Shown: in pieces, positions 2,342 to 44,600 of the stretch
Layout of the letters: each line of letters begins with the position of its first letter
How positions within the stretch are numbered: position 1 is the stretch's first letter
Assembly (NCBI GenBank): GCA_904066235.2
Contig: CAJFCV020000004.1
Coordinates: 2,790,001-2,854,000, forward strand
Direction: 5' to 3'
Source of the DNA: Bursaphelenchus xylophilus
Taxonomy: Eukaryota; Nematoda; Chromadorea; Rhabditida; Aphelenchoididae
DNA length: 64,000 nucleotides
Made by a program: the position numbers and the translations under genes
Notes under the pieces: model-generated
The model's input: the letters and a program-made list of their open reading frames with translations, nothing else
What the model was told of the DNA's origin: nothing
The model's database searches: none

Positions 2342-2617
2342 TTAATGTAATGTTCTTCTGATAGTCTTTGTGATATTCCCCTCCTCATCGACGGATTCAA
2401 TCTCTTGCTCTGGCTCAATATTCCTCAATCGGTCTTCGCTTTCTGTCCCGGTAAATCGGACATGGGAATGGACCGGGTCATTCGTTCTGGTGCGAACTTT
2501 CCGAATGATCGTCTCGGTGGTTCCATCGGGTTTTTCTTGCGTTGTCTGGAAGGTGGTGATTGTCTCGTAATCATCCAAAGCGCCATCCAGTGAGTCTCTG
2601 TCATCGTCGTGGTATTC
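2342..2617 (-). CDS. unc-44: unc-44 exon 19: C-terminus
   Basis: Starts [20 protein letters not shown] and ends in [15 protein letters not shown] and TAA. The pattern [21 protein letters not shown] then DEEGN-TKTIRR is typical of giant ankyrin C-termini. A conserved end after thousands of low-complexity residues indicates that the giant reading frame is maintained. Confidence 0.93.
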   Translation of the reverse strand, partial: EYHDDDRDSLDGALDDYETITTFQTTQEKPDGTTETIIRKVRTRTNDPVHSHVRFTGTESEDRLRNIEPEQEIESVDEEGNITKTIRRTLH

Positions 2618-5600
2618 CTAAAAAAATTGTCAAAGGTTTATATAAAATTCTTGTTTTTTTTTTTTTTGGCATACATTGCCTACTGTAATATAAAAAAAAA
2701 TAAAAAAAAAAGAAAATAAAGATCTCAATTCCTCACCTGGAAGGTCCCAGCTGTATCCGCACTCATTCCAGCTTGCGTATCTTGACTTTGGACTCCGGAG
2801 GTGCCTTCATCCAGCAAAGAGTCATCATGGTGTTGTCGGGATCCCGAGAACTGGGGTTCCAGCGAATCTATTGATGTTTCCATCCGATTCAAGACAGGCA
2901 TTCCACCAGAGGGCTCAAGAGAGTCAGCTGACGTGATCATGGCTTCAGCAATTATCTAGAAACCCAATTTTTGAAAAGATTTTATATTGTACTTGATTAG
3001 TAATGGAGAAAATTTTAAAATCCTTAAGAGCATAATTTAGAAATCTTATAGAAGTATTTGAACGGTGACAAAAGCTAGTTTCTAGTTCCTACTATATGTA
3101 TTCCTTTGTATTTTGCGCAAGACCCTCCAAAAATCTCACCTGCGCTTCGTTCAACGAGTCCTCGTCATCTCCCTTGATGCTCATCTCCTCCACTTCCGAC
3201 TCCTCTCGAATATCGCTCAAGATCATGACCTCTGGGCCGATGGCTTGTCCAATGGCCTCTTGGTTGATCTGATCTTCCAGCACCTCCCTCTCGATATTCT
3301 CAAATTCCAGCAAAGAGTTCACTGAGCCTGTGGCGGACGCCACCATCTGTTCGTTGTCGCTTTGGCCGGGGGAAGTCTGTTTTCCCACAACTTCTTGCTC
3401 CAGACGTTCGAATTCCAACAACGACGATTGAGATCCATCATCAGAGTCTTTCATTTTGACGTCCGGGTTGATTTCCTTCCGCACGAAGACCGTCGATGAG
3501 GCGTTGCTGCTTCCCGAATCATTTGAAGGCGAGATCTCGGCCTTAGCATCGGCTTCCATCTTCTTCGCCGCCAAATCGTAGGCCTCTTCGTTTTGATCGG
3601 CTTCAAGTTGGCCGTCATAGCCAACCTCCTCTTCAGCCACGGATTCAATTGCTCGTGTGCTCTCGGGAGTCTTGGAAGTCCCCGCCGGACTGGCTTCCGA
3701 CTGCTCCACACTCTGGGTTCTTGGTGGGATTGGGCTTTGAGGACGGCCGATTGGCTCGGCTGGCGCTAGAGCTCCTTCTTTTTCAACGAGATCAAAATCA
3801 ACGTGTTTTTCGTCAAGTTCGGACTCGATTTTTATCTCAACTCCTTGATCGAACCGTTCTACCGTTGGCTTCTCATCTTCGGATTCAGAATCCTTGCTTA
3901 AATCGGGCATATGGCCACCAAAGTCTTCTTTGGTCAACTCGCGGTCTTTTAGAATTGAGCCCGCCGAATCGGTCCGTTCAAATTCAATATCCCGCACTTT
4001 CCGCAGATCAGGTCGTTCTAAATCTTCCAATTTATGCGTCAGCTCCGACTCCTCGACTCCAAGGCCGAGTTCGCTGTCCTGAAGCGGCGTTGAGGTGGGA
4101 GATTCAGCGCCTCTTAATCGAGGCGAGAATGAATGAGCCTTCGCGTCTTTGGCTCTTATGGCTTCGCTTTTTGCGATCTCCTCTTCAGTCATTTGGATGT
4201 CAATGATATCGTCGTGTTGAATGATATCAAAGTCATCTTCCTCTTGACGTTTCGGGCTTTCCGCTTCGTGTTGTTCCTCTTCTTCTTCATGATAAATCTC
4301 TTCGGCCGGTTGACGAGCTGATTCATCGTGTTTTTCAAAGTCCAAGTCGGTCGACTCAACAATTTCCACATCATCAAAGTCATAGGGCTCTTCCGCGGCC
4401 TGAGGCGATTCCCTTTGCTCTGCAGATGTCACAGATTTGCTCAGCTCATCTTTGTGGGTTTGTTGACCTTCTAGACCACCTTGGGCGGCTTCTTGACTTT
4501 CAACAAGTTGTTCATGGCTCCCCAAACCTTCTCTATGCTCCTCTCTGTGGATGAAGTGAATATCGCCGGAGGGCTCAAAGTGATGTTCGTCGGGTAACGT
4601 ATGAATGTGAGCTGACTCTACGACATCCTCGCCTTCATACTCGACTTTCTCATCGTGCTTGGGCTCGTCCTTGACTCTGATATCCTCCGGAACATCTGAT
4701 GTTATAATGGCCTTGGCCAATGCGCTCATCTCAACTTGTTCTTCCTCTGTAAGGCCAAACTCGTCTTTTTTGTCTTTCGGAGATTCAATTTTAGGCTCTT
4801 CATGCTCTTGGACTGGTTGGACGAGTTCATGGCCTCCGGCACTCTCTTGACTGAACTGCCGTTGAATGTCTTGTTGAAGAGTGTCCAAGGATAAGATAAG
4901 ATCCGATTGTTTTCGAATTGGCGTCGTTGGAGTACCATCAAATGATCGGCGAGTGTCTTTGCTCTCAACAGCTTCTTGTTTTGTTGGAGATTCCTTGGTT
5001 GGGCTCTCTTTTTCATAGACACTTTCCGACATTACACTTGAGGGTTCTTCTGGATGCTCAATCGATTCAGATTCGACCAACCCATGATGTTCTTGGTCTT
5101 CGGCAGACACCACTGGGCGTTCATAGGCTTCTGGACTTTCTAAATCTTCTTCCGAGTCCTGTTTTTGCGCTAGATATTCTTTCTCACTGGTGATTTGACC
5201 AGGTTGGCTTTCGCTTTGTTCAATACCTTCACTCTCCACCAAATGTTCCTCGTCAATTCGCCTGAACTGGTCTTGATATTCAGTGGTTCCAGTGGTAGTC
5301 TCGGGCTCTTCATCCTCTTTTAAGAAACGGATTTTCTCCTCAACACTTGGTTCTTCGTCCGGTGAGATAATATCGACCGGTGTTTTCTGTGGGCTCAACT
5401 TCGGCGAAGCTGGAGGCTCTTCAGCCCCAAGATCAATGCTCTCCGACTCGACCAAGGCTTGACGATCAACCTCGTGTGTGTCTGTCTCGCTTCCAAAACC
5501 TTCCTGTGGATGACCTTCTTGATCTCGAGGCACTGTAAAATCGATGACTTTAGGCAGATCATGATGTTCTTGAAGATGATGTTGAATTTCTTCGGACTCA

Positions 5601-8600
5601 ACAAGTTCGGGGGAATGGGCATTCGGCTCGAATCGTTCCTCTTCTTCTTTGAGCTCATGAACTCCGAAAGCCTCTCCGACTTTGCCAGGAGAAATTGGCT
5701 CTTTATGAGATGGAGCCGGTTCGTGGAGCTCAACTTCTCCTCCAGTCTCTTCTGGATGTCCCTCTTGATCTCGTGGGACAGTATAGTCGAGAACTTTGGG
5801 GAGATCGTGATGTTCTTGAAGATGGTGTTGTATCTCTTCGCTTTCCACAAGGTCAGGCGAATGTACGTCGGGTTCAAAGTGGCCTTCTTCTTCTTTGAGT
5901 TCATGAACTCCAAAAGCCTCTCCGACTTTTTCCGGAGAAATTGGCTCTTTGTGGATCGGTGAGGTTGGGGTGTCTTGGAGTACGGTGGATTCATCAATAG
6001 TTTCTGAGTGAACCAAGCCACCCGATTCTTCAAATCTTGAGCTCTTCGGCGATTCCAAGCCTTCAGCGCTGGGATGATCAATAGATTCTGATTCCACAAG
6101 CTCTCCTTCGGCTTCAGACGGTGTTTCAGATGGAGCTGTTGGAAGCTGACGTTGCTCTTCTTCAGCCGTCTTCTTTGGCCACTCAACTTCTCGCTTCGCT
6201 GGAGTTGGAGTCTCTGGCAACTCCGGGGCTTCATGTTCTACAGTTTCGGAGCGCACCAACGGTTCTTTATCCTCTTCGAAGGATCTCCTCTTCGGTGACA
6301 AACTTCCCATTTCTTCGGGAGTCTCAACGTCCAGGGATTCGGATTCAACAAGACCATCTGTTTCGCTCACATGGAGCGCGGTGATTTGGCTGTCACTTGA
6401 GAGGACTTGCGAGCTTTCCCGTGAAATCTCAGATTTTCTCTCAAATTCGTCCTTGGAGTCTTTTCGGAGAGGGCTTTGGAGGTCTTCTGGGGACTCAACG
6501 ATCTCTGAAGAGTCTATGGTATCCTCTCCCTCTTTTTTGTCTCCTTTCAGCTTGTCATACAGAGCTTTTCCTCCGAGATACGCAGCTCCTGCAATCATTG
6601 TGCCAAGACCAATCTTTTGCGCTTTTTCTTCATCGATTGACTCGCTCTCAACCACCTCTTGATCATCTTCTTCGCTTTTCTTCTCTTCCTTTCCAACTTT
6701 TTCTTGCTTTTTGTCGACTCCTTCGATGCTTTCTGTGTCCACGACATCCTCCAAGTCCCCTTCAAGTTCCTGATGACTAACCACCGGCTCTGCCTCTTGC
6801 CTGGCATCAACACTTGTAGCGACTTCTTTGGCAATGTTGCCAACTGGTTCCGCTTCCTTCCAGGAAGGCGCGCTTGGAGTGGTTTGCTGTTCAACGTCGC
6901 CGACTGGCTCGGTTTCCAGCTGAATGTCGCCGGAGACATGGGTCTCACGATCGAGGTCTCCAACAGGAGTGGTTTCCGAGTGGATGTCTTCGGAGCGATG
7001 ATGCTGCTCGTCTGGATAGTACTCTTCCTCTTGCTCAATGGACTCGGATTCAACGAGTTCGGAGGGTGGTTTGCGTTGGTCTGAAACGGGGACATTTTAT
7101 ACGAAAGAAAATCGCAGAGTAACTGTTAATCTTTTTGCTTAAAAAATGGCGTATATAGCCCCTATAATTCACTCACCATAAAGTTCATGAACACTTTGTT
7201 CCATAACATCCCGACCACTCCGTTCACCCTCTTCGTAGGCTTGCTGTTGATCTCCTTCTTCGTCATGATGAATATAAATGGACTGTTGCATTGGGTCCTT
7301 CTCCTCATCATGACCTTCGTACTTTTCGCTAGCGAACTCCGGCGTCTGCTCAATATCGTAGCTGTAGTCGGTTTTCGGAGTCCGGCTCTCAGATTGCGGA
7401 GTATCAGCGGGAATGTAGATGCTTTCCTGCATGATATCCAAATTCTCGTCCGTGTCCTCTCGTCGCACTGTGGCTATGGACACTGGCGATTGAAGGTCCA
7501 GATTGTCTTGGGCGTCGATTCCGAGGTCATGAGGTCTTGGGCGGATTTCTTCGGTGGAGCTGTGATAAGGTCGATCATCAACCAGTTCGACGGGTTCATT
7601 GTCAATTTCATCAACAAGCTTTTGCTCGGACTCCTCTTTTTCTTCAATATCAGTTTTTCTTTGGCTTTCTGAAGGCTCAGTGACATGCTGCTCATGTTGT
7701 TCATCAACTGGACTGGCCTGTTCTTGGCTCTGCAAAGCCGCAAGTTCGTAGTCCTCCAAATCTCTTGTCACGTAATCTTTTGTTGATTGACATGGACTGG
7801 ACTCGTCATAGCTGCCAACAGGCTCGGCTTGGTGTGTTGGGTCTTCGCTTGGGGCGGTTTCTTTATCAATATCGCCGACAGGAGAGGTCTCGGACCTTCG
7901 TCGATAAGCTTCTGGATACTCTTCTTCTTCGGCTTGCTCATCTCCCGTTCCTCTCAATTTCTCGGCCAATTTCATTGCGCCATAAGCCGCCGCACCAGCC
8001 AACATTGTCGCCGGGCCAATTTTCTGACCCTCTTCAACTTCTTGAGCATCAACATTCTCTCTGATCGGCTGTTGAGAAATGTCCAAGTGTTCTGTGGACA
8101 TGGCCTCACTTTCGACAATATCCGACGCCGGTGAGCGGTTGATCGGGACCCTCTCAGTAATTGTTAGCCCTTCAATTGGTTGTTGCTCAAAAACGTCGGC
8201 AGTTCTAGCCTCATGATATGGATGACCATCTCCAATATCGAGATCTTTGACGCTAGCATTGCTGATGTTCTCCAACTCCTCTGAGCTCTCTTGGACGTCG
8301 CCCAGTTGGCCTTCTTCAGCTTGTCGAACTTGATGTTCATCTCCTGGCAAGCGCGACTCTCCTCTGATCTCGGCGCTCTTCAGCTCATAAACATTGTCTT
8401 CCGGATGTTCGTCATCAAAGTCTTTGACGTATTTGACGTCGCTCAACACATGGCCTTCCTTGTCCAAGACCTTTTCATCTCTCTCTTCGTGAACATGATA
8501 GTGAACCGGCTCGTCTCCGCTGGCGATGACCTGATCAATTGGCTCACTTGCATCCGGCAAATGAACCTCCTCGGCTCCCTCAGGGACATGCAGATCATAC

Positions 8601-11600
8601 TCTCTGGTTGTGGTGATCTCTCTGTCCTCTCCGCCGAAGCCAACAACATGTTCGACGCGCTTTTCGTGAACATGAATTTCATGCTCCCCTTGGACGGGTA
8701 CATGATCATCAGAGGTTTTCTCGGTGATGTCAAAGTCTTCGACAATCTCGACTTCTCTGGGATGGCCGAATTCGTCTTGACTCCACTCAGTGTGCTGCTC
8801 ATGAACATGAACTTCTTTGGGCTCTTCAGTGGTTGGCAAATCCTCCGGCGAAATTTCAATTTCTCTGCTGGCGTCGCTATATGATGTTCTTCGCTCCTCC
8901 TCTCCAATCGAAGTTTTTCTGGTCTCATATACCTCTGGATGTGCCGTATCATAATCTCGGGTTTCGATGATGTCCTTCAGAACATGCCCATCTGGTCCGA
9001 TGACCGTTTCATGACGTTCTTCATGAATGTAGACTGTCTCTTTCGGCTCTTCAGGGGGCGCCGGCAATCCCTCAATGAATTCTTGACTTCCTTGAGTTTC
9101 TGGGACCTCTTGGACTCCTTGGCGTTGTTTTTCATCAGCTTCTTTATCTAGCTTATCTCTCAACGCGTGTTCATCAACCGCTGGACGTTCAAAGTCATCA
9201 TCAAACTCGTGAACGGTTCTATGCTCTTTTCTGGTCAATTCTGGGCTGGTCTTTGCACTATCCCCAACATGACGATAACTTTCTACAGTGTCACCCTCTG
9301 TGGGCTCAAAGTCTTCGGCAGGGACTTGCTCATAGCCCTGTTTATCTCCTTTCAGCTTGTCGTAGATAGCCTTTCCTCCAAGATAAGCCGCTCCGGCGAT
9401 CATTGTTCCTAGGCCCATTTTCTTGGCCTTATCTCCTTGATCCTCTCCTTCTGGGGACTCTTCATCTTGCGCAATAGGTTCATAGCCTCGATGGCGCTCC
9501 TCACCCTCCGTTCTTTGAAGATCGGATGTTTTCTGAGCTTCTGCTGACTCTATTCCACTAGATTCCGCTCCATAGACATCAATATCTCTTCGTGATCTTG
9601 GCCCCTCCGCAGTGAAGTCTTGTTCTTCCGCTGGAGTGCCAATAACTTCAACCGAAGCTTCAGTTGGAACCGCAGGTCTGTCGGGAATCTCTGACTCTTC
9701 AGGCAGCGGTGAGGGATGTCGCTCTCTTCGCTCAAGTTCCTCCACAGTCTGCGGAAGTTCCTCGGTGGATCCGAAATGATGTCCAATCACTTTTTCATGT
9801 CCGTCTCTGGGCGACTCTTGTTTCTGAAGGGCTTCGGGGCTAAAGTCGGACTTCAAACTTTGATCTTCGGGGATTTCCTCGACTTGGTATTCGGATTCCG
9901 GTTCGGCCTCGCCGGTTTGAACGCTGTAAGTGTCGGATTTCCTTGACAAATCCTCGGATCTGGCCGACTGAGGGATCTCTTGAACAGCGGGGCTTTCAAG
10001 CGGTTTATTTGGGCTTCCAATTGACTCCTTCCCGCTCAAGTCATAGTGTTCCTCGTGTTCGACAACCGGTCCCTCGTCTTCTTGGGTTATGGTTTTATGA
10101 GTCACTTCCACATGTGGTTCATGAACCCCATCGCTGGTATAACTGTACTCGTACGAGTCCGTCATTACCGTATGATGTGGCTCATGATGGATCTGATCGC
10201 TCACTGGACTGGGCTGGTCGATGACCTCAAACGGAGATGAGGTCTGCTCAGGGCTACCAGCAACGTCCTGTTTATCGGCAGAATGACTTGAAGGCTCATC
10301 AAAATGTTCTACAGAGTACTTTCTCTCCAAAACCACTGGTTCTCCGGGACTTTGCACAGCATCTCCTGGGATATCATAGTGCTTTTCGTGTTCGACAACA
10401 GGCCCATCGTCTTTCTGAGTGGAAGTTATGTGAGTGACCTCGGTATGAGGTTGATGTTCACCATCGCTGGTGTACGAGTATTCATAAGTGTCTTTTGTGA
10501 CGACATGACGATGTTCTTGAGGTGTCTCTTGGCTTGGCGAGACGCGAATATCATCCTCTGTGGGTGAAAATCTTTCTGGAAGTTTTTCTCCGTCTTCTCC
10601 ATGCTTTTCAACATGATGTTCCGGGGTTTCAGGAGTTCCATGTACCACAGATTCAGCAGAAATACCTCCGGCTGGAGATGGCTCTGAGATTTCAGCCGGC
10701 GCTTGAGGACTTTCCAACGCTCCACCAGCAATGTCATAGTTGCCTTGACTCTCAACAATTGTGTCGGAGGTTGTAGTAGGCTCTTCGACTTGGGCGACCT
10801 CAAAGTCTGGAGTTTCTTTTTGCTGAGTGGCTTCGAAATGAAGATCTTCGGAGACTTTGCGAGCTGGCTCGGCCTCTGAGACTTCTCCTTGGCTCTCCGG
10901 AGTTTCTACGATCTGTTTCCGCACTGAAGCTGGACTTTGTTTGGCGGAATCTCCAACAGAGCGATATTCAACTTCCGGCTCGTGTTCAACCTCTTCAACA
11001 AGTCGGCCATGATCATCCTGGGCTACAATGTGATGTTCAAACTCTTCTTTTGGCTTTCCACTTCCATCATCAGTATAACTGTACTCATAGGACTCCGAGA
11101 CAATTTTTCCGGCACCTCCTTCTGGTTTTTGGTCATCATCAGAGTCGTGCCCATCATATCCTTCCCCTTGATCTTTGTCTCCTTTTAGCTTGTCGTAGAG
11201 CGCCTTTCCTCCAAGGAGAGCTGCGCCAGCGATCATCGTACCAATACCCATTTTCTTGGCTTGATCTTCTTCCTCTGGAGTTTGTTCATGTTGTTGAACT
11301 TCTTGTTCATGTCTTGTCGCTTCTCTGACATCCTCAGTCTCCAGTTCACTTGGCTGATCAAGGAATTTTCTGGCACTTTCGTCCGGACTGCTTTCTTTTC
11401 TCTTGGCTTCAGATTCTTCATGAGCGTGTTTATGTGGTTGTTGAGCTTCTTGTTCATGTGCTACCGCTTGCCTGACATCCTCAGCCTCCAATTCACTTGG
11501 TTGATCGAGGAATTGTCTTGTACTTTCATCCGGACTAATTTCCTTTCCTGTTCCGACAGGCTCTACCGACTCTGTAGTGCGCAACTCCTTCTCAAGATCT

Positions 11601-14600
11601 CCAACTGGTTCAATCTCTCGTTTCGAAATCGAGACTCTTCCCACAGGCTCAACGGACTCGGTGACCCTCAACTCTTTTTCTAGATCACCAACTGGCTCAG
11701 TCTCTGATTTCACAGTTTGTTTCTGCTCTTCAGCCACCTCTCTTTGATGTTGTTCGTGCTCTTTTTGTTCTTGTTCTAGCTCCTCAAGGAACTCGCGATC
11801 TCTGGCTTCCCCTGTATCTTGTGCCAAAGCTATGGATCCTTCTGTGGATCCGGCGCCTGATTTCTGCTGAAATTCTGAGGTCTTCTGAGCTTCCGGAGAG
11901 GCAAGTCCAGTCGATTCGGCGGAGTAAACGTCAATATCTTTTGTTGATCTTGGCCCTTCGGCTGTGAATTCCTTCTCCGAAACCGGAGTTTCTGCAATTT
12001 CAACGGCCTCTTGTTGCTGCTCAGCTGGTTGAGTATCTCCTCTAGCACTTGAAGCAGCTGAAAGTCTTCGTTCAAGTTCCGAAACAAACTCCTTCTCGGC
12101 TTCATGGACTTCTTCAATCGGCTCGGGATTTTCGTCATCGTAATCTTTCACCACTGTCGTATCTTTAATAACATGTCCGTCAGCATCCAAGACTTGCTCA
12201 TGCCGCTCCTCGTGGACTTTATAATGGCTCTCGGTTACATCGGATTCGGGTTGACCACTCACAAATCCTTCCTTGACTTCTTCTCGGATATTCTCGACCG
12301 GTTGATCTGCCTCCGGCAATGTAATCTCTGTCCCACTGGGCGCTTCGATATCATAGTCTCGCTCAATCAAAACTTTCTCAGGCTGATCGTCTTCACGTTC
12401 AACTCGTTCTTCATGAATGTGCATCTGATAATGTTGATCATCTTTGGGGACAACATGAATGTCCAAGTCCTCTTTAATCGACTTTCTCCTCAAGTCTTCG
12501 GTTGTCTCGACTCGTTCCTCGTGGAAAGTCTGAGTTCCAGAAGGTGGTAAGACGCTAGGATCAATGTGAATTGTCTGCTCTTCGAAGTGGCTGACCGGCT
12601 CGGCCTTGACGTCGTGTCCCACCGCGGCTAGACTGACTTTTCTCTCATCCAGAAGAGGCGACTGTCTTTGTGAAGTCTCAGAAGGTTCTCTTGTGTCGTA
12701 ATTTGACTCAAAAGTTACATCATCAACGAGATTTCCGTCTTTATCAGTGATTTGTTCGTGGTAATGTTCATGGACATGAACGACTTTAGTTGGAGTCGCT
12801 GGCGGAGATTTCGGGCCTTCCTCGGAGATTGAAGCAGCCGATGAGGAGATCTCCAAGGGTTTTTCTGGAGTTTCCAGTTGCTCTGCGACTGGAGATGGCG
12901 CTTCAGCTTGAGGCTGGCTACTAGGCTCGGCCTCTGAGACTTCACCTTGACTCTCTGGAGTTTGTACGACCTGTTTTCGCACTGAGGCTGGACTTTGCTC
13001 GGCGGAATCTCCAACTGATCGATATTCAACTTCAGGCTCTCTATGTTCAACCTCTTCAACAAGTCGGCCCTGATCATCCTGGGCTACAATGTGATGTTCA
13101 AACTCTTCTTTGGGCTTTCCACTTCCATCGTCGGTATAGCTGTACTCATAGGATTCCGAGACAATTTTTCCGGCACCTCCTTCTGGTTTTTGGTCATCAC
13201 CAGAGTCGTGCCCATCATATCCTTCTCCTTGATCTTTGTCTCCTTTAAGCTTGTCGTAGAGCGCCTTTCCTCCAAGGAGAGCTGCGCCAGCGATCATTGT
13301 GCCAAGACCCATTTTCTTGGCTTCATCTTCTTCCTCTGGAGTTTGTTCATGTTGTTGAGCTTCTTGTTCATGTCTAGTCGCTTCTCTGACATCCTCAGCC
13401 TCCAATTCACTTGGCTGATCGAGGAATTTTCTTGTGCTTTCGTCAGGACTGCTTTCTTTTCTCTTAGCTTTATCTTCTTCCTCTGGAGTTTGTTCATGTT
13501 GTTGTTGAACTTCTTGTTCATGTGCGACCGCTTTCCTGACGTCCTCAGCCTCCAATTCACTTGGTTGATCGAGGAATTGTCTTGTACTTTCATCAGGACT
13601 AATTTCCTTTTCTGTTCCGACAGGCTCTACGGTCTCCGTGGTACCCAATTCTTTCTCAAGGTCTCCAACTGGCTCAATCTCTCGTTTCAAAATCTCTTTT
13701 TCCAGCTCTTCCTCAGCTTGATGAGGAGACGCACCTCGTGGAGACAGGGGTTCAGATTCCAAAGCCTTTTCTTGAGCTGATTCTGGGGTCGAGACATCAA
13801 TCGGCGATGGCTCCTGAGATCTGGCGCTGTCGGATGGTGTAGCCAGCGCTTCAGCTGGTTCATGGGCTTTTGTTTGATCCACAGCTTCAGATTCCGTCTT
13901 ATGAGCTCGTTCCGTATCATACTCCTCTTCATGGGGAGACAATTCCGGGCCTTTGAATCCATGAGTTTCCGATATTTGGCCCTCAACAACTTCTCCTTGA
14001 GCTGTATGATGAATGGGGATGCTTCTCGTGGACCGCGGTCCTTCCGCCGTGAAATGGTCCTCCGACGATTCTGAAGGTGTCTGCGCGAGTAAATCCTCTT
14101 CGCAACGGTCGCCGGTTCGTCCGGATTGCTCAGCAGCCACCTCACGCTCGCTTGGAGAAACCGGTGACTTATCCGATTCGGAAGGCGCGTCCGAAGGCAC
14201 AGTGTGTTCTGTGGGACTCCTTGATTCGTATTCTTTGTCATCATGGAGAGAAGAGGCCACAGCGGCGGCGAATCCGCCAGCGGCAGCCAAAGCAGCGGCT
14301 GCTGCCGCTTTTCCGTAGCTGTGTTCCTCTTCGTCCGGCTTGATATGGCTTTCTTCAACGTTTCTACCGGCCTTTTCACCTTCGTCTTCTTCGACAACTC
14401 CTTGTTCGGCAGTTCGACTGATTCTAATCCTCTGTTGTTCCGAAATTACTTCCGGTTGGACTTCAGAAGTTTCGGATTTACCCGCACCAAGCTGCTGAAC
14501 CGAACTTGACGTACTCGTCGATAAGTCTGGTGTCTGAGCTGCTTCTAGATGCGATTCAGGAGTTTCTTTCTCGCCCAGCTCGCCTGTCTCGGCATCCTGA

Positions 14601-17600
14601 ACCTCTTCATCTAGTGCTCTGTGGATCGGCAGGGTTTTTCGTTCCCCTGCAATCTCGGTCGGCTCTTCTGAAGCCTCTTGTCGGGCTTGATTTATCCTCG
14701 CGAATTCCTCATCACTTGGGGGTTTAGTTCGCACTTGAACTTCCTCTTCAACTTCTGCTTTTGCCAGACCTTCATCATGATCGCCAATTTCGGCTTGATG
14801 TTCCGGAACCTGCCGTTCAAATCCTTCTTCGTCATGTTCGCTCTCTAGGCTTGTCGCTGGCTCTAATCTTCGTATTTTCTCCTGAACCGAGACATTCACA
14901 ATGTCATCGCCGAAGCCGGGCTGCACCTGAACGGATTCATGCTGTTCTACTGAGAGCTTATGGACTGTTTGAGCAATGTCCTCGAGATCTTTGTGTTGCT
15001 CCGTTTCCGGGATTGTTGATGCGCTTGGCTCGACCTCCACCTCTTCCCGAACAATGATTTGCTCGCGGCTATCAACGCGCGACACGCCGTCGCCGGCGAC
15101 AACGTGATGTTCGGGGAATTGAGCCGCCGAGGAAGTGTCAGTGGTGCCCTCGGAGGGCTGACTGAATTTCTGGACCAGCTTGTGGACACTGACTTGAGGC
15201 TCTTCGGTGGTGGCTGGAGAGGGCTCTGCAAGCTCTGAAATGAAAATTTTAGTAAAAATTATGAAGATAGATTAATTTGAAGAGCTCTAAATGTAATAGC
15301 CATGATCTTGGAAAAGTTTCGTACCAAGATTCGTACACTTCTTTCCAAACGAATCTGTTTTCATACGAAAGATATCAGGTTAGTTCCACACCGCTAGGCT
15401 CTCTTGTTTACCCATAAACCACTAGGTTTTTTATCACGCTTCGTTTTCTGAGGCATGCCGAAAACAAACTGATGGCTTATTCAATTTCCGGAGGTTTCGA
15501 AAACGCCGTCGTGAGGATTTTATTTTAGCTTCCGTGCATATAGTGGCATGTGACTAAACCTTTTATAGAGAGTTTTCGTTATGTAAATGGGGCTTAATTT
15601 TGGCCTAAAACCGCTTCTTGGGACTTCTTTTTATTCCCAGCAACTTCAATGGTCAAAATTTTGCGTAAAATCAACTACGTGGGACCCACTCCTTTGACGG
15701 TCGGCACATACGGGCAACCAATTTGTGGGCAGCTAGAATAACCGCAGAGATCTGGACGCATGTTTGGATCAGCCAACATTTGCTTACAACAGGAAATTTT
15801 AACCCTGGATTTGGCAGTTAGATGTTGTGATTTAAACCTCCGGCTGCAAAAATGACTTAGTTTTGATAAGGTTTTAGCCAGGTATTTTTAGAAGTTCAGA
15901 AAGCATTTTGACAAAAAGAAACTCCCATAACTTTAGAAGCGGTAGATAGATTCAAATGAATTTTTCATATTTGCGTATTTATCAGTACCAGGGTTTGTCA
16001 ATGCAAAGTTTCTACGTAGATTACGGTAGGAAAATTGCAACTCTAATTGATTGATGTCGGCTGTTCGCAAAGTGGTTGCCCCTATGGTGTCGAACGGCAC
16101 TCCTTTTCCTCAACATCTACACTGTATTTTTAACAATTTCTGTGATGATGTCGTAAGATGTTCTATTATTAGTGGAGGTAAAGCAATAACTTAGTCGGTG
16201 AATATTAGTGCTAGATTGCCCTTGTGTTAGTATATAAGGCAAGAACTAAATTAGCTTTTCATGACTTGCTTGGTAACCTTTTAATAGCCAACCTTTCTTC
16301 ATGTTTCTTTTTTTTCATATTTCTTTTCCCGACAAACCTTGTGTATCCGACTTCGGTGGGCTCTCCACCGTCAACGCTCTCCCGATTTGCTCGCGCTGCT
16401 CCGTAACGACCTGAGGCGTTGACGGCGACTCCATTGGGGTCTCATTCAACCGCTCCGCTTCGGTTTCTTTTCCTTCGGCCGTTCGCTGAATCGACAGCTC
16501 GGTTGGGCGCTGAGAAACATGCTCTTCTTCTTTCCTTTGGCCAGAATGCTCGCGGGCCTCTTCTTCAATCAATTCCGACTCTACCGTTCGATGAATGGGG
16601 AATTTGGCGGTCTCTTTGAGCGATTCAAACCGGGCGATTCGGTCTTTCACGGAGTCTGAACTCACGGACTCGGTGTCTTCTATAATTTAAGGAAATGGAT
16701 TTGGAAACCTTTTGGATTGTCATGAAATTTTGTTCGGTAGAGTAAGTGCTCGAGCGTGACGCAGATTTTGACAAAAGTAGGTAAAATTAAGACTTACAGT
16801 GGTGGACTTGATCCAGTGGCAAGAAAACGTGCCATTTTGCATCCAGGAAGTATCAAAAGTGTGGCAAAATACGTCCCTCTCCACGTGAAAAAACTCAGAT
16901 TTCAAAAGCCCGCCAGCTCTTTTTGTGAGGAAGCCCTTCAAAACGGAGTTTTTTTAGTTGGAGTGGGAGGCATTTTGCTACATTTTTTGATACTTCCCGG
17001 AAGCAAAATGGTACGTTTTTTGCCACGGTATCAGATTTGTCGCTGTAGGTAAAATTAAAACTAGTTTTTGAATAAACAATCTCTAGTGTTTACCAGTGTA
17101 ACACAAAAGCCAAAATTTCGAGAAAATTTTAGCTGCGCACCTCGAGCACTTCCTGTGTTGGAAGGGCTATCCAACATGTATCGCAAACGAAGGATATAGG
17201 GTAAAAAAATGCCGCCTACGGCCATCAAAAACGCCCAAAAGTGAGATTGAATTGAGTGACTTGATAGCAGAGGGAAAACAACGTATCATTTTGCCTCCGG
17301 GAAGTACCAAAAATGCGGCAAAATGCTTCCCTCTCCAACTAAAAAACTCCGTTTTGAAGGGCTCCCTCACAAAAAGAGCTTTTGAAATCAAAGTTTTTTC
17401 GGTTGGAGTGGGAGGTATTTTGCCACATTTTTTGACACTTCCGGGATGTAAAATGGTACCTTTTTGCCACTGGATCAGGTCCGCTACTGTACCGGTCTAT
17501 CGGCCTATTCAAACTTTCCCGGGTATTTTTATTTTTTTTTCTTTGCGATACATGTTTTTACTACATTGACAAGCTCGTATTTTAACCATTTTGCATTATT

Positions 17601-23600: not shown

Positions 23601-26600
23601 TATCTAATGTCGCCTAAAATTCATAGAAATCTTGGCTCTTAAATATCAGACCAATGACAGCCATAGCTAACGGTGATTTTGATAGATAATACCCTTCTAA
23701 CATCAGAATTCGTTTTCAAAATTATAAGGAGTATTTTATAAAGACAGTAAAAATGAGATCACGACGATGATTCTAGTCTACCAATGAAACAGTTAGTATA
23801 AACTAATCGACAGATGAAAATGGATTGACAGATAGCTGAAGCGTTATTGGGAAAAGAAAGAGAAAGAGGGATGGAAAGAGATCAACACAAAAACTAGTGC
23901 TGTACGATCACTGTACGAACACTGCACACGAATTCTACATACACCTCGCACTACTATGATCTATTCTACCACCTTCTATGGCATGTTTCTATCTAGCACA
24001 TTTATCAACTGAAATTTTAACGGATCCGTCCAAACAAAGCTAACCAAAAATACGATTAGTTTTTGACGTCGTAGCTGAAAAATAAACCTTGTAACGGAAT
24101 GCTTTTGATATGCAATATCATCAGCATGCCCTGCTGAACATTCTGATATCATATTCGATATGTCTCGATACGTTTTACATGGTAAAAATACGGTTTGATT
24201 AAAGGCCCATCAAAATTTTCTCTGGATAACAAAAACCTCGCGCAACTTATGTGCGAGTTGCGCAACACAAAAAACCTCAAGCATGTAGCGATTGGTACCT
24301 TTGACGGACGACTCGGTTGTGGTGATTTGTCGGACGGTGCGTTTGTGAACACTTTCCGTGCCATCCTCGTTGGTCCAGCCTTCTTCGTTGGCGTCGCGGC
24401 GTTTCAGATCATCTATACCATGAGAATTAAGAATCGGCCGGGGTAAATGTGGTATCACTTTGAAGCTCAAGCTCTGTTCTATCACATACTGTAATTTTGT
24501 TACAGTACGAACCCGTCATTTTGCAAAAAATAGCTATTTTTCGCCCAAGCCCCATCAAAAATGACGTTAGGAAATTTCCTTTTTTATAACACTCCTATTC
24601 CCCCTAAGGGCCGAGATTCCTCAGGGTCACAAAACATGGCAGATGCTGATTTACCTGGCTGATCCTTGGCGTCCACATTTTTACCGTAGTCGTTTCGTCC
24701 GCCTGCAAAAAACGGGTGCGATATTTCTGGTTCCGAGGTTGGGCACAGTGCAAATCATATTCTCATAAAAAAAACTCATCAAGCGGGAGGTCAGTAAAAC
24801 ATCTACCGGGGGGACACAGATCTCTCACACTACTTTTAGTACCAATCAATTTGTAAAATGTTAGAAATTCGCCTCAAAACTTTTAATTTTTGATATAAAA
24901 ACCAAAAAAAATGTTATTTTCGCAAGTTTTGCCCAAAATGTTAAGTTTTTTACAGTAAAGAGTGTTGCTAGATAGCCTATAGTGAGCATGTTAGTGCCAC
25001 AAACACAATACGAAATAAAAAAAATATAGGTGGAAAGCAGTTTGGTGAGTGGCAAGCAACGGAAAATTAGAGAAAGCAAGGCATCGTGTTAATGTTGTGT
25101 TAGATGTTAGACATAGATGGCAAAGGTTAGGAGTCAGAAGTAGTAGTAGCTTTTTAAGGCAAATTAAAACTGAGGTAACCTTCAAAGAAATGGTTAAAAA
25201 ATGGGTTTCACTTCAAACGTTCAAACAAATATAAGTGGTTGTAAAAAACCGTTAAAAAGTAATAGTTACTGTAACACGTAGTTGATGAATTATACATCAA
25301 ATTAAAGAATATCACTCCTAGAAAGCCTTGATGACTAAAGATTCTAACTTCAAAATCATTCCAGAACAAAAAAACCATTCAAAGTTAGGACGACTCTCAA
25401 AAAAGTTAGCTCCAAAAACCCTCAAAAAATTACAGTAAGACTACCTTCACCGTCACTTCTAAATCAACGAGGACACAGGTTACCAATAAACAATTAAGTT
25501 AGTCACCGCTTTTTGAACAAATTCCCTAAACTTTGGAACGAAAACCAACTCGGAAAGACCCACTGATTTTGTCCATGAGCTTGGTTTGGAGTTCGCGGAG
25601 TTGATCGGGCGCCAACCCCACCATACCCGGCGTCTCGGTCTCGTAGAACTGCGTATGCGAGGTGCTTTTCCTCGAGGCGGACACCACAATCTGCAGATCA
25701 CTGTGCGGATACTCGGATTGGAGGATTTTGCCGACCAACTCGGTGAGCTGGGCGTCTGGCGGGACTCCCGTGTTTTGAAGCCGCATCTCCTCTTCGAGTT
25801 GTCTCAAGCGCTCCACAATATTGTCGTATTTCGGTTTGTCGGTCATTTTCAGCTCTTTGAGATTTCTGAGAATCGAGCTGATTATCGACGATGGCTCAGT
25901 TGCTGGAGCTGGACTGACCACGTTGGTCGAATGGAATCCACTTTCCTGACTTGGGGATGGTAGATCAACGACTAAAGTTGAAGCATTCACTGCAGGGACG
26001 ATCTTGATCGGAACGTTGCGCTCACCTTCGCTTGTGCGGCTATCGAAATTTTGCACAGTGCGGCGATTCTCTTCTTCCGGTCGAATTTGAGTGTTCTGGA
26101 TTACAGTCGTAGTAATAACTCGTTCGGTTTGATCAGTAGGTCCAGTAGGAAATTTGTATAGTCCAGAATCGCTCTCTCTTCCCTCAGGCTCCGATAATTT
26201 TACAGTAGAAAATTCTGGCTGCACAGTGCGGACAGTTTGCTCAGTACGATCTCGAGCCGGTGGCACAGTGCTCTCGGACTGAATTAGAATTGGAATAACA
26301 CGCTCGGAATGGTTTTGACCCGACGGCAAGGTGGGTGTGGGCTGTTGGCCATTCAAAACGGCCACGTTCCCTTCGTCGGCCCTTTGTGTGGCTGGGCGCT
26401 CCCCGAATTGAATGGGCTCTTTTTCCGGCACCTGGCCGGATTGATCAGTGCCGACGGCCCGCAGGTCTTCCTCCGAGGCCCATCGCTCCAGCGGCTCTAT
26501 TACAACGCGTCGCTCTTGTCGAGCCTTCTCTCCGTTCGGCGCGCTCTCTCGACGAATTTTGATTTCGCTGAGATCTTCTTCGCTTTGAACATTCTTTTTG

Positions 26601-35600: not shown

Positions 35601-38600
35601 TAAACCTGTCTAGCAAAAAAAATCATCTTTTTTAGCATAATCATCCAAATTCAGTCCAAAATTGTCTAAATTAATATAATTTTAATCCAAAACTTCAATA
35701 AATACTCTATTTTTCTATTCCAAAAAGCTCATCTCCCTTCCTAAAGCCCTTCACTTACCAGTAGCTTCCTCTCCCTTCAAGAAGACCCAGATTTTCAGCG
35801 CTGTGAGCGCTTCGTGTCCGCTCATTTCCTTCTTGATCTGCCGGATATCACTGTCGTGGATTCCCAGCGCCCTGGCCAGCCGTTGCCAGTCCCCATGGAT
35901 CTTCTTGGCCACATAGTCCATTTGTGTGGCCAAATCTCCCTCCGTTGGGGAGCCGGTCAACGCGGTTTGATAGCGCGCTTGGATCGGGTCCAATGGGGAA
36001 GTTGCGGCTGGTTTGAGGGCCGGCAAAGGTCCTCTGTAGTCGGGCAAAGTGATGCTGAGGGTGCAGATGGGATGCTGAGGTGGTAGGTTCTCGGATCTGA
36101 TTCTCGGCTCCTTCATCAGAGCGATTCGACCGGTCGCACTGGCCTCCTGATCATCCGGTTGACGGACCTGGAAAAACGTCAAATTTTATGCATTTTCACG
36201 TTTTCTCTGCCTAAGCTTTTGGGCTCAAAATTTCCCTTATCACTCCTAGTTTGTATTTCGTACCTTCGAATTGAACGCCAGCCGGTTTTCTTGGAATGGC
36301 AAGAAGAAAACGGCCAATTGGTCGCCACTTTTCGTGATCGGAACCAAATTGCCGGCAAACTCGAGGAATTGATGTCTTCCGCCGAGAACTTCGACGTCTC
36401 TGCTTCTGGCGACTTCGATAAAGCCTTCTTGTTTCTCCAACGTCTTGTCCTCCTTGTCATCGGTCATACAGAACAGTCGGAGTTGGCCTTCCAATGGGAA
36501 CGGACGCCGGGCAAAGGCGACAAACTTGGCCATGTATGGAACAGCGATGGCTTCGTTGTAGACTTCCTGCGCCATCCGGGCGGCGTCACGGGGAGTCTGG
36601 CAGTCCATTAACCAGAATCTGGCGGACACTGTTGTCGTAAAACTGACTTCTTCGCCGGTGAAGGTCAGTTGAGTTGTGCCGGTGATATCTTCCCATTGAG
36701 CGGGAGATGAGCCTCCGGTGATCGAACATAGGAGTCTGAAATTAACAAATTATCATTATATTTTCGTCCAAAGTACTATTCCTTAATTTTTCAGCCGAGG
36801 AGAAGACTTGACACATTTGGGAGAACACTTGACCCAAATGTGTCAAGTGTTCTCCTCAAAGGCCAAAACGTTGTAATAGCCTTCACACTTCCAAACTACG
36901 ATTTCTACGGCTTTTAAAACCCATTTTTAACTTGGTTTATTTCCGATTCACGCTAAGCGAACACTTGACTCAAAATGTGTCAAGTGTTCTCCTCAGTCCT
37001 CAGAATTCCGGAGACCATCTAAAATACAATTCCATTCACCAACTGAATTCCCCTTATCCATTTCAATCAATTTCCGACCATTACCAGCCCCGGGAAAACA
37101 GTTGACCCGCATGAGTCAACTCTTTCCCTCGCTCTCCAACCTACCTCAAAGTCGGCGGCTCTTGCCCCGGTTGTCCAGTATACTGTGTGAGCATGCTCTT
37201 GTTCGAAGACTGCGGCAGTGGGATGCACAATGTGATGGGTTTATGGAACTTTCTCCGCCTCGGCTCCACCGTAACAATCGGCGAAACGGCGACTCGATTT
37301 CCATGCAATTTGGTGACAATTTCGTTGGGTACGGGTTGCGCCTGAACCGAGACTTTGATGATCTTGGTCAAACTTCCATCCGGGAAGATGGCTTGGACTT
37401 TGGGGACCACCGAAGAGAGAATGACTCCTCCTTCCGGGCCCACGCAATGAACCTCTTGACGGACGCGCGTCACCACCGCGAAATACATGGGGAAATCGTT
37501 GGTGAGGATGCGAGTGATGCGAGAAGTGTGTAGGTCGTCGAGTTGGCTGAGTTCGTTGGCGTCGAAGGACTCGTTGAGAACCTGAACACAAGATTTTTGC
37601 TATTTTTTTGGATTTCATCGATGTTACAGTAATCCTTATAGACTGTTTTGTTTTAAAATTACATTTCAGAGCTCATAATATTATTTACTAACCATTACAG
37701 AGCCGCGCGATCCAAAAAAATGCAAAAAGTCACGTTTTTAAGCCAAAAATGGCCTAAAGTAATATCGGATTACTCAAAATTTTCCATTTTTTATATCAAC
37801 AATTAGCTAATAATGTCATAAAAAGTCTCAAAAATAACAAAAAAGCAATTTACCTCCTGAACAGCATCTTCAGTGGCCTCCAATTGATGTTCTTTCCAAT
37901 GTTGGCCATCATCCGATCTCAAGATCACGATTTCCCTTTCTCTCCCCCTCAACGATGCGAAGTGTGGCACCTCCAACACGACGGGTCCCAAGAACTTGGC
38001 ACTATGCGGTCCCATCTCCAGGATTCGCGACGCCAGCGCCTCTCCCTCACTCAATGGCGGCGGATGGGCCAGCTTTTCTTTGCGCAGATATCGACAAGTA
38101 ATCCGCATTGGCTGGGCCGCTTTTCGTGGTGGAATGATGACACGGACGCCCGAATGACGACAGCCTCGCATCGCACCGCCGCGCGCGTCCACCAGGAACG
38201 AGATCAGGAAGCTAAAATGCACAGTAAGCAACTAGGGCCAAGAACGGGCAAAAGATCAACGAAAATACGGAGATTCAGGCCTAAAATGAGTGGGAAATTG
38301 CATTAGCTATAATCACTTATATACTAAACTTTCATAAATTCTATTTTCAACCAATTTGAATATAAGTTTTCGTCTCTTTTAGGCAAAAAACACAAAATTT
38401 CGACACTTCTTCGTCAAAAAGTCATCATTTTTTGATAATTTTATAAATTTCCCACAAATTTTCAGACACAGTGCGTAGTGTTATAGACGATAGACCAGTT
38501 AGCGTGTTTAGCAATCATTTCACAGCAGCGCACGTTCAAAAACCCCGAATTTAGCGGCTTGTTGCAGAATGCCAATTTTCGTCTCAAGACCCAAAATTTT

Positions 38601-41600: not shown

Positions 41601-44600
41601 GGTAAATAGTACTCCGCAAGGTCTTTTTGGGGCTCAAAAAACAATTTTTTGGGCATTTTTAGGCGGTCGGGATACTGTAATTTACAAAAAAAAATTTTGG
41701 TTTTTCACAATTTTTTCAATTTTTTTGCAAAAACTAAAAACAAATGGTGACAAAATCACAAAACTAAAAGCCAAAGCCCCCACGACATTGGTTTGTCTCA
41801 AAAATTTCGCAATTTCCCTCCCTAGAACAATATCGAAAACACCTTTCAAAGCCAATTTTCTGTGCCTTTGACTCGCGACGGAAGCGAAAAGGCGTAAAAT
41901 CTTTTCGTGGAGAGCCCACAATTTATTTTGGCACCACAAAAAAACCCCGTCACGACATGAAATTTCCGTCGCCAATCCCCGAGGAAATCAGGCGGGGGGG
42001 AAAACAATGGGGCTTGGTGGGACGTCACGGACTGTCGGTGGACTGCCGTAGGGGCCGGATTTTGATTTTCATATGTTTCAGAGTCTAATGAAACTGTTTG
42101 AAATCCAAAAAAATAATTTATAAGGGAAGTAGTACCCCAAATGCGACGCCCAGATTTTGATGAAACTTGGCACAAATTTAGTATATTTTTTTCTAAAATA
42201 TATTCGAGAATCCTAGCTCGCGCTTTGCAGAAACAACCGAGGTTTTTAGATCGAAAGTCAGCGAAAATTTAGGACTTTTTGCCGAATTTCGGCACAAAAA
42301 GTTTCATGCCTATTCCTACCATAGAGGGTAATGCTTCCACAAAAAATCATTTTTTTCCGCGCGAAACTAACAAAGTTATGGTCAAAAAGTGTTTTTCTCT
42401 CTGACCGCTCTCCACATTCAATGTACTCGCTCGGCAGAAAAAATCGTTCAATATCTCGGCGGCGGCTGCAAAGCGTGAGCTAAAACTTTCAGGCATTGAT
42501 ATTTAGTCTATTCCCGACGTATGTACAAAAAAAATTAAAATTTAAAGAATATCTCACTTGAAGTACTTCCCATGCAAATATCAACTCCTACGACGCCCAG
42601 ATTTTCTTTAAATTTTGCACACACGTCGGGCATAGACTAAATATCAATTCCTGAGAGTTCTAGCTCGCGCTTTGCGGGCGCCGCCGAGACATTGAACCAT
42701 CTTTGAAGCCGAGAGAGTACGCTAAACGCGGAGAGCGGTCAGAGAAAAAAGCATTTGACCATAACTTTGTTAGTTTCGTGCGGAAAAAAATGATTTTTTG
42801 CGGAAAGATTACCATCGATGGTAGAAATAGGCATGAAACTTTTTGTGCCGAAATTCGGCAAAAAGTCCTAAATTTTCGCCGTCTTTCGATCTAAAAATCT
42901 CGATGGTTTCTGCAAATCGCGAGCTAGGACTCTCACATATATTTTAGAAAAAAATTTTCTAAATTTGAGCCAAGTTTCATCAAAATCTGAGAGTCGCAGT
43001 TGAGGTACTTCGCCAAAAAATAAACTCCGTATTTCTCCCAAAAAAAATTAATCTCCAACTGCCAAATTAGATCTAAACTTAAAATTACCCCCAGTAGGTC
43101 AGAATAAATCGGAATTGGAATAAAAAACCAGCTGAAAAAAGACCAGCGGATCAACTCTTTGTGTCAATGCCCGTTTCAAATGCATATTCGAGTGAATTCC
43201 GATGGTTTGTTTATTTCCCCGCAGGGGATTACGCGGCAAAACAATTTTCGGACTCTCAGCGATTTTTTGCAGCCTAAACACTAAGAAAATCGGACGAAAT
43301 CTCCGCACCCAAATCTTCATGAATAACAAGTGACCTCCTATAAGGTTGATGCATAATTATCCGGCGTTTATATCGGCGCGTTTTGTTAGTTAAAATTGGC
43401 GTTTTGTTATATTTTGCATAAAAATAATCTTCTCTAGTTAGTTAATAAACATGAGTGTCGAAAACTATAGTCATATTCGCCATATTATGTTCGACGATCA
43501 GGCACTTCTGGCAGTCGCGGAACACGACGAAAGCTTGACAACACGAATACAGTCAACGATCGTTCGACGTCTCAAAAAGCTTGGAAAGGTATGGAAATTG
43601 GCTGGATGGGCCCCTCACAAACAAAGCCAATTGCGCAATTTGTTGAAAAACGCCGGATAATTATGCATCAACCTAATATAATGTCGGATGTCTTGACTTA
43701 CCGCAGTTTTTGTATTCGGACTTGCTCCATGTTCGAGCAAGTACCTCACAACGGAGTTGTGGCCCTGTTGGGCGGCCTGATGAAGTGGTGTGTAGCCGGC
43801 GGAGGTCTCCGAGCCTACCAGCGCGCCATGCTCCATCAAGAGCCGGACCATGTTGAGTTGGCCGAAATGACAGGCCACATGCAGTGGGGTGTATCCGGCC
43901 TTGGTTTTGGCGTTCACTTCGGCCTTGTTGGCGAGAAGGACTCGTGCGGCGTCGACCTGATCCTCTTGGGCGCAGAGATGAAGAGGGGTGAGGCCGTTGT
44001 TGGCGGTCGCATTCACTTTGGAGCCGTTCTCCAACAGCAACGCCGACATCTCGCTGTGGCCCGATTCGGCGGCCAAATGAAGCGGCGTGAAGCCGGCTTT
44101 GCTCGTGGCGTTGGGGTCGGCTTTGTAGCTCAATAAAGAGGAGGCAATTTCCATTTGATTCTTCTTGGCGGCGATGTGCAACGGAGTGTATCCATTCTTG
44201 GCGGTGGCTTGGGCGCCGGCTCCGTTTTGCAGCAAAAGTTGCGCGACTCGATCGTTATTGTAGTGAGCGGCGACATGCAGAGGCGTCACTTGGTTCTTGC
44301 CTTCAATATCGACCGGTGTGCCGCGTTCCAGCAGCAGTTTGGCGACGTCGTAGTTGCCGTATTTCGAGGCCAAATGAAGCGGAGTGAAGCCCTTCTTGGT
44401 GAGTGCGCGTTGGTTGGCGTTGTGGTCGAGGAGGATCTGCGCCACCTCCTCCTTGTCCTCCTTGGCGGCTATGTGCAGGGCAGTGTATTCGTCTTTGGAA
44501 GCGGCGTTCGGATCGGCTTTCGCGTTGAGGAGGATCAGGACAATATCGGTGTTTCCTGCAAGAAAAAAATGATGGTACAGTACCCCCAGAAAAGAATTTT

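What the first reader, a model, noticed from the sequence alone, without database searches (positions are those of the whole stretch)
6537..14320. Six hydrophobic Gly/Ala-rich islands spaced along the giant ankyrin tail
Five near-copies of [20 protein letters not shown] followed by LKG lie at about 13234-13322, 11174-11260, 9340-9428, 7937-8033 (diverged: [20 protein letters not shown]) and 6537-6624; a sixth Ala-rich island ([18 protein letters not shown]) is at 14229-14320. Each is about 25 residues in an otherwise acidic, disordered tail, spaced by roughly 330-690 residues. The G-x3-G/A spacing and basic C-terminal edge resemble amphipathic or membrane-inserting helices, or self-association motifs. 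The tail could therefore be more than a spacer: a string of evenly placed sticky sites for membrane, microtubules or itself. That role is inference.
Basis: partly seen in the sequence, partly recalled or inferred. Interest (0 to 1): 0.82.

Follow-up and report, generated by a model that had tools for sequence, protein, structure and literature searches.

The report
Hydrophobic helices in giant ankyrin tail
A huge nerve-cell scaffold protein of the pine wood nematode carries six short, greasy stretches spaced along its acidic tail; similar stretches were reported in C. elegans in 2002, and here they look like conserved docking helices rather than membrane-spanning segments.

Summary
The window is Bursaphelenchus xylophilus, not Caenorhabditis. 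The gene is its unc-44-like ankyrin; the islands lie in the giant tail downstream of the Death domain. Four are near-identical, one is diverged, one Ala-rich. Among the four, the five older pairs keep amino acids (pN 0.05-0.08) while synonymous sites change (pS 0.5-0.8), so these are under strong purifying selection. B. okinawaensis has all six plus a seventh. An unnamed, probably nematode, giant has two of the same motif; nine other nematode records scanned show no match.

The feature as a kind is known: the title of Otsuka et al. [quoted passage not shown] elegans UNC-44 AO13. The evidence here argues against membrane spanning: unfavourable insertion energy, a lysine in most helices, and 6 versus 7 islands in congeners, which would flip the conserved C-terminus. 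Amphipathicity and G-x3-G enrichment did not beat permutation. AlphaFold models island I1 as one 22-residue helix. Best guess: cytosolic docking or self-association helices; inner-leaflet binding is a close rival. Part of the tail is predicted beta-hairpins, not disorder.

The parts
14246..14311 (-). Ala-rich first island ([22 protein letters not shown])
   Evidence: B. okinawaensis counterpart 15 of 27 aligned residues identical
13235..13318 (-). Island I1, 28 codons
   Evidence: AF2 helix, ten-residue pLDDT blocks 73, 79, 64
11174..11257 (-). Island I2, in a recent segmental duplicate of I1 and its flanks
9341..9424 (-). Island I3
   Evidence: also drawn as a helix in a second model, but at pLDDT under 50
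7949..8026 (-). Island I4, diverged
6536..6619 (-). Island I5
7177..15234 (-). Giant tail exon (Ala island, I1-I4)
   Evidence: open frame 7172-15271; splice signals read by eye; tblastn of P0001
3137..7080 (-). Second tail exon (island I5), after a 96-nt GT..AG intron at 7081-7176; low end approximate, from tblastn
   Evidence: P0001 reads across this junction
2345..2955 (-). Last two mapped exons (2737-2955 and 2345-2623), part of the conserved C-terminal module
8375..9040 (-). Four HEER-type beta-hairpin units between I3 and I4
   Evidence: coordinates by arithmetic
12101..12787 (-). Four HEER-type units between I1 and I2
   Evidence: sequence only; coordinates by arithmetic
43618..46605 (-). 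Ankyrin-repeat open frames (43618-44634 and 45064-46605) of the same gene
37911..38201 (-). ZU5 domain
35760..35924 (-). Death domain (positions 3-62 of 86, 30 bits, over the cut-off of 22.6)

Best explanation
The islands are the nematode giant ankyrin's hydrophobic domains, of the kind described for C. elegans UNC-44 AO13. Shown: four of them are under strong purifying selection, all are kept in B. okinawaensis, the I-type motif was found nowhere else in this genome, and they recur about every 480-500 residues in a tail that ends in a conserved C-terminal module. Inferred: each is one cytosolic helix of about 22 residues, with small residues plus a mostly conserved K, Y/F, D/E and K, that docks side-on against a protein surface, either a cortical partner or another island. 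Several weak docks per chain would hold a very long acidic tail close to the cortex and to neighbouring tails, so that the far C-terminus stays at the membrane skeleton instead of drifting into the cytoplasm. In C. elegans that C-terminus binds UNC-119, which bridges to UNC-33 and microtubules. Identity as AO13-type hydrophobic domains: about 0.85. The docking mechanism: about 0.4.
For: Exact residues are conserved, not only hydrophobicity. The five older pairs among I1, I2, I3 and I5 have pS 0.51-0.80 and pN 0.047-0.078, while their 120-residue flanks have pN 0.51-0.59; four of the five can be corrected, omega about 0.03-0.06. Orthologous 24-mers of I1-I5 are 19-22 of 24 identical between the two species, with flanks at 17/61 to 54/106 aligned positions for I1, I2, I3 and I5. 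A profile built from Bursaphelenchus alone found an island in P0004, an unnamed record (10.0 bits; 0 of 200 local shuffles reach it); a pattern drawn from both sees two there. AF2: one helix L25-G46 of the I1 stretch. Against membrane spanning. C-terminal module shared with P0012, a single chain with ANK, ZU5 and Death.
Against: No partner is known and no binding was tested. AF2 rests on 5 paralogous rows, mean pLDDT 59.8; the helix ends in a block of 64, and I3 in the second model is under 50. The conservation moment is not significant (P 0.11), so no single conserved docking face is shown. I4 differs from the others with pN 0.34-0.39 at pS 0.45-0.76, so those pairs give no sign of strong constraint, and its flanks are almost as conserved between species (88/119) as the island (24/30). 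The Ala-rich island keeps mainly its character (15/27). No profile match in nine other nematode records (P0003, P0005, P0006, P0007, P0012, P0015, P0016, P0017, P0023). Islands are not the most conserved parts of the tail (56th-92nd percentile of 30-residue windows). Interface partition values favour membrane binding for four of six islands.
Confidence: 0.4

Rival explanations
1. Inner-leaflet membrane anchors: each island lies in the cytosolic face of the plasma membrane as a shallow helix, stapling the tail along the cortex.
For: Wimley-White interface sums of -1.8 to -2.5 kcal/mol for I1, I2, I3 and I5 (scale recalled), and helix prediction for I1. In C. [quoted passage not shown]
Against: Interface sums near 0 for I4 and the Ala island; hydrophobic moment no better than permuted in 11 of 11 Bursaphelenchus I-type islands; acidic flanks; membrane helices usually conserve character rather than exact residues (general knowledge).
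Confidence: 0.33
2. Transmembrane helices, as the 2002 title proposes for C. elegans AO13: the tail threads through the membrane several times.
For: Title of Otsuka et al. 2002 (reference lists only); KD17 maxima 0.92-1.86; a 22-residue helix could span a bilayer (inference). The extra B. okinawaensis island o6 lacks the mid-helix lysine and has the mildest I-type energies (+1.6 and +1.2 kcal/mol).
Against: Summed Hessa scale +2.6 to +7.2 and octanol +2.6 to +4.5 kcal/mol over the best 19 residues for the six B. xylophilus islands, against -2.9 and -9.3 for a glycophorin A control (scales and control recalled); a lysine at the same mid-helix column in four of five I-type islands and one residue on in I4; 6 islands in B. 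xylophilus against 7 in B. okinawaensis would put the C-terminal module, 85% identical over 299 columns, on opposite sides; all seven blocks have similar make-up (D+E 23-29%, STEP 36-47%).
Confidence: 0.07
3. By-product of module duplication: islands are copied with their modules and have no role of their own; even spacing is module length.
For: I1 and I2 sit in a recent duplicate with similar flanks (103/119 and 99/119 identical); HEER arrays follow I1 and I3.
Against: In the five older pairs the flanks hardly align (pN 0.51-0.59) while islands keep pN 0.047-0.078 at changed synonymous sites.
Confidence: 0.1
4. Internal Velcro: weak self-association of islands within one chain compacts the tail into loops, with no outside partner.
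For: Several near-identical Gly/Ala-rich stretches per chain, one modelled as a helix.
Against: Small-x3-small pattern not enriched; no dimer model was made here.
Confidence: 0.1

Closest known systems
C. elegans UNC-44 AO13 giant ankyrin hydrophobic domains (H) between STEP blocks
   Same: Giant ankyrin, long exon after the Death domain, STEP-rich blocks separated by hydrophobic stretches; seven in C. elegans by the papers, seven in B. okinawaensis, six here
   Different: The C. elegans letters could not be fetched, so sequence-level homology is untested; the 2002 title calls them potential transmembrane domains, which the evidence here argues against for Bursaphelenchus
Drosophila Ank2 XL/L and vertebrate giant ankyrin exons
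   Same: Giant, Ser/Glu-rich ankyrin insertions (passages, PMC5135030)
   Different: No island-profile hit above 0 bits in the 115 non-nematode records among the 127 proteins scanned
Anisakis (P0006), Cercopithifilaria (P0007) and Ditylenchus (P0003) giant tails
   Same: One or two Gly/Ala-rich hydrophobic patches in an acidic tail with the same C-terminal module
   Different: No sequence-level match to the Bursaphelenchus island profile: scores below 0, within the shuffle range

Membership tests
UNC-44 AO13-type giant ankyrin | Ankyrin repeats, ZU5 and Death domain in order on one strand | tested here: met
   the Rhabditophanes giant maps onto window 46482 down to 35760
UNC-44 AO13-type giant ankyrin | Very long STEP-rich exon downstream of the Death domain | tested here: met
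   STEP 36-47% per block; tail exon 7177-15234 against Death at 35760-35924
UNC-44 AO13-type giant ankyrin | C-terminal module shared with single-chain nematode ankyrins | tested here: met
   36% identity to P0012 (ANK, ZU5, Death; E 2e-28), 30% to P0015 (ANK, ZU5; E 2e-11)
UNC-44 AO13-type giant ankyrin | Hydrophobic domains between STEP blocks | tested here: met
UNC-44 AO13-type giant ankyrin | One transcript joins ankyrin core and tail | not testable with these tools
   No RNA data; the deposited model P0001 starts inside the tail
UNC-44 AO13-type giant ankyrin | Island letters homologous to the C. elegans hydrophobic domains | not testable with these tools
   No C. elegans giant was listed
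Transmembrane helix | Favourable insertion energy | tested here: not met
   (recalled scales, simple sums without position weights)
Amphipathic membrane helix | Hydrophobic moment above that of permuted sequence | tested here: not met
   0 of 11 Bursaphelenchus I-type islands exceed; 1 of 2 P0004 islands does (P 0.006); the Ala-rich islands were not put to the permutation test
Glycine zipper / GxxxG helix | Small-x3-small enrichment beyond composition | tested here: not met
   0 of 11 Bursaphelenchus I-type islands and 0 of 2 P0004 islands
Any Pfam family | Match over gathering score for tail or islands | tested here: not met
   both tail open frames and 4 of 6 islands alone

The most novel reading that the evidence does not exclude
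The islands are a sequence-defined repeating anchor that fixes the giant tail to the cortex about every 480-500 residues, a contour of roughly 170-180 nm if fully stretched (0.36 nm per residue, recalled), close to the spectrin period of about 190 nm (recalled). One ankyrin tail would then run along the membrane skeleton with one anchor per spectrin repeat, a molecular ruler for the periodic UNC-44/UNC-119/UNC-33 complex.
Probability: 0.06. Interest if true: 0.75.

Novelty: new member of a known kind. Interest (0 to 1): 0.38.

Why it matters
Giant ankyrin tails are often treated as spacers. Here the hydrophobic domains get a defined motif, selection evidence, a cross-species comparison and an argument against the transmembrane reading in a 2002 title. 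They become a short list of removable sites for asking how the tail of a giant ankyrin stays at the neuronal cortex.

Tried and rejected

A Caenorhabditis comparison was wanted, but none was listed by the three protein searches (the last listed 120 of 1644 passing proteins, so absence from the list shows nothing). Inter-species dN/dS was not possible because only the B. okinawaensis protein was at hand; comparisons between islands replaced it. On the recent I1/I2 pair alone the island contrast is marginal (1 nonsynonymous change against 3.9-6.4 expected from flanks, P 0.10 and 0.01). Rhabditophanes and Trichinella records lack the motif.
Full report
What the sequence is. A search with part of the tail returned a Bursaphelenchus xylophilus protein identical over the 901 residues searched (P0001, 4290 aa) and its B. 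okinawaensis counterpart (P0002, 4034 aa). So the window is the pine wood nematode, not Caenorhabditis. On the minus strand the window carries ankyrin-repeat open frames (43618-46605), a ZU5 domain (37911-38201), a Death domain (35760-35924) and, further downstream, the tail exons: tblastn of P0001 places residues 13-4290 at 16680 down to 2345, and its first 12 residues at 17177-17142 with weak support. The deposited model P0001 starts inside the tail. The link to ankyrin rests on order, strand and homology: the last 303 residues of P0001 match the C-terminus of a Rhabditophanes protein of 6541 aa that has ankyrin repeats, ZU5 and Death in one chain (P0012, 36% over 314 columns, E 2e-28) and of Trichinella Ankyrin-2, which has ankyrin repeats and ZU5 (P0015, 30%, E 2e-11). 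A transcript joining core and tail was not seen.

The islands. I1, I2, I3 and I5 share 24-27 of 28 residues pairwise; I4 shares 12-15 of 28 with the others. The first island is Ala-rich. The tail without the islands has no segment with KD17>=0.9, although shuffling that part gives 3.5 on average; in the whole tail 6 are seen against 4.0 in shuffles, and 20% of shuffles reach 6. With I5 as query the whole-genome search listed five matches at E<=10, and all five are I1-I5; a longer query with I1 gave four matches at E<=0.001, all in this gene. Only the tool's best candidates are scored.

Selection. Nei-Gojobori counts on 28-codon cores: I1/I3, I2/I3, I3/I5, I1/I5 and I2/I5 have pS 0.51, 0.56, 0.68, 0.70 and 0.80 with pN 0.047, 0.062, 0.055, 0.063 and 0.078. 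For the first four the corrected omega is about 0.03-0.06; the fifth is beyond correction. The 120-residue flanks of these pairs hardly align (pN 0.51-0.59). There are only about 20 synonymous sites per comparison, so the figures are rough. Against this, the four I4 pairs have pN 0.34-0.39 at pS 0.45-0.76: I4 has gone its own way. I1 and I2 are a recent duplicate with similar flanks; there the island contrast is marginal. Between the species the orthologous 24-mers of I1-I5 are 20, 20, 22, 20 and 19 of 24 identical, whereas the 60-residue flanks are identical at 38/112, 17/61, 45/119, 88/119 and 54/106 aligned positions; the contrast is small for I4. The Ala-rich island is 15/27 identical. The islands are not the most conserved tail parts: they fall at the 56th-92nd percentile of 30-residue windows, and several longer stretches, among them hairpin units and the C-terminal module, are at 80% or more.

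Other species. B. okinawaensis has all six plus a seventh at about residues 3295-3324. It lies between DEHHFEP and VESTDLD, whose starts are 151 residues apart there and 77 here; the B. xylophilus frame is continuous at that place, so the absence is not an annotation gap. A profile of the 11 Bursaphelenchus I-type islands, run on all 127 proteins fetched, scored above 0 only in P0001, P0002 and P0004. Of the 127, 12 are nematode records, counting P0004, which has no name but matches nematode giants at its C-terminus (42%); the other nine nematode records beside the two Bursaphelenchus gave no match. In a test with 200 local shuffles each on eight of the ten non-Bursaphelenchus nematode records, only P0004 exceeded its shuffles (10.0 bits, 0 of 200, best shuffle 1.2); P0003 (Ditylenchus), P0006 (Anisakis) and P0007 (Cercopithifilaria) scored below 0 within the shuffle range, and P0005, P0012, P0015 and P0017 gave no domain. 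P0016 and P0023 (Trichinella) were left out of that test. A pattern drawn from Bursaphelenchus and P0004 together matched nine places in the 127 proteins (591,013 residues), all of them islands; this is partly circular, and the pattern misses I4 and three B. okinawaensis islands of the I type. Anisakis, Cercopithifilaria and Ditylenchus tails carry Gly/Ala-rich hydrophobic patches of similar character.

Physics. AF2 on five paralogous rows gives one helix over L25-G46 of the I1 stretch, in ten-residue blocks of pLDDT 73, 79 and 64, with poorly defined flanks; mean pLDDT 59.8. A second model, of I3 and the stretch after it on two sequences, also draws I3 as a helix but at pLDDT under 50. Summed Hessa values over the best 19 residues are +2.6 to +7.2 kcal/mol and octanol values +2.6 to +4.5 for the six B. 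xylophilus islands, against -2.9 and -9.3 for a glycophorin A control; the seven B. okinawaensis islands are positive too (+1.6 to +7.9 and +1.2 to +4.2). Interface values are -1.8 to -2.5 for I1, I2, I3 and I5 and about 0 for I4 and the Ala island (scales and control from memory, simple sums). Hydrophobic moments of the 11 Bursaphelenchus 24-mers do not beat permutation (P 0.19-0.40), small-x3-small pairs are not enriched, and the conservation moment is P 0.11. One of the two P0004 islands is amphipathic by this test (P 0.006).

Why not transmembrane. Besides the energies and the lysine in most helices (absent at that place in the extra B. okinawaensis island), parity speaks against it: six islands in one species and seven in its congener would place the C-terminal module, 85% identical between them over 299 columns, on opposite sides of the membrane. 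In C. elegans the C-terminus binds UNC-119, which bridges to UNC-33, and the giant isoform is cortical (passages of PMC7159925). That the module here does the same is inference.

Literature. Otsuka et al. 2002 was not held. [quoted passage not shown] The legend of Figure 2 in PMC7159925 speaks of "seven hydrophobic domains (H)". Of the six papers listed, only that one holds the term "hydrophobic domains". I saw passages of four papers (PMC7159925, PMC5135030, PMC7343241, PMC9433327) and listings of the rest; none of what I saw tests the hydrophobic domains, which does not show that no test is in print. So the feature is known in kind; what is added here is the motif, the selection evidence, the second genus, the copy-number difference and the argument against membrane spanning.

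Mechanism. I favour cytosolic docking helices (0.4) over inner-leaflet anchoring (0.33), because exact residues rather than general character are kept in I1, I2, I3 and I5. This is inference: no partner is known. Even spacing (P 0.009 and 0.0002 against uniform placement) may come from module duplication, as HEER arrays follow both I1 and I3.

Noticed in passing
8375-9040 and 12101-12787 (-): Two arrays of four HEER-type units (such as [32 protein letters not shown]), largely conserved between the two species. In the array at 8375-9040 AF2 draws long beta-strands, pLDDT 51-87 over most of units two to four and under 50 over unit one. No convincing profile match in the other 125 proteins (best 5.8 bits). 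The tail is not simply disordered.
   Followed up: partly
about 10800-13700 (-): I1 and I2 with about 120 residues on each side are a recent segmental duplication (103/119 and 99/119 residues identical).
   Followed up: partly
25529-28492 (-): A 988-aa acidic open frame between the Death domain and the giant tail, no Pfam match; its end (25562-25882) matches Rhabditophanes giant ankyrin residues 1783-1889 at 35%, so it is probably another exon of this gene.
   Followed up: no
2345 to about 3560 (-): The C-terminal module (about 300 residues) is, with a short stretch before it, the only part of P0001 with BLAST matches at E<=1e-4 in the non-Bursaphelenchus nematode giants compared; a good candidate for the UNC-119-binding end.
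   Followed up: partly
P0006 (Anisakis): A record with this tail but no precomputed ankyrin domain is named Microtubule-associated protein 2 in UniRef; P0001-P0007 all lack precomputed Pfam domains, so tail and ankyrin core may be split between gene models.
   Followed up: no
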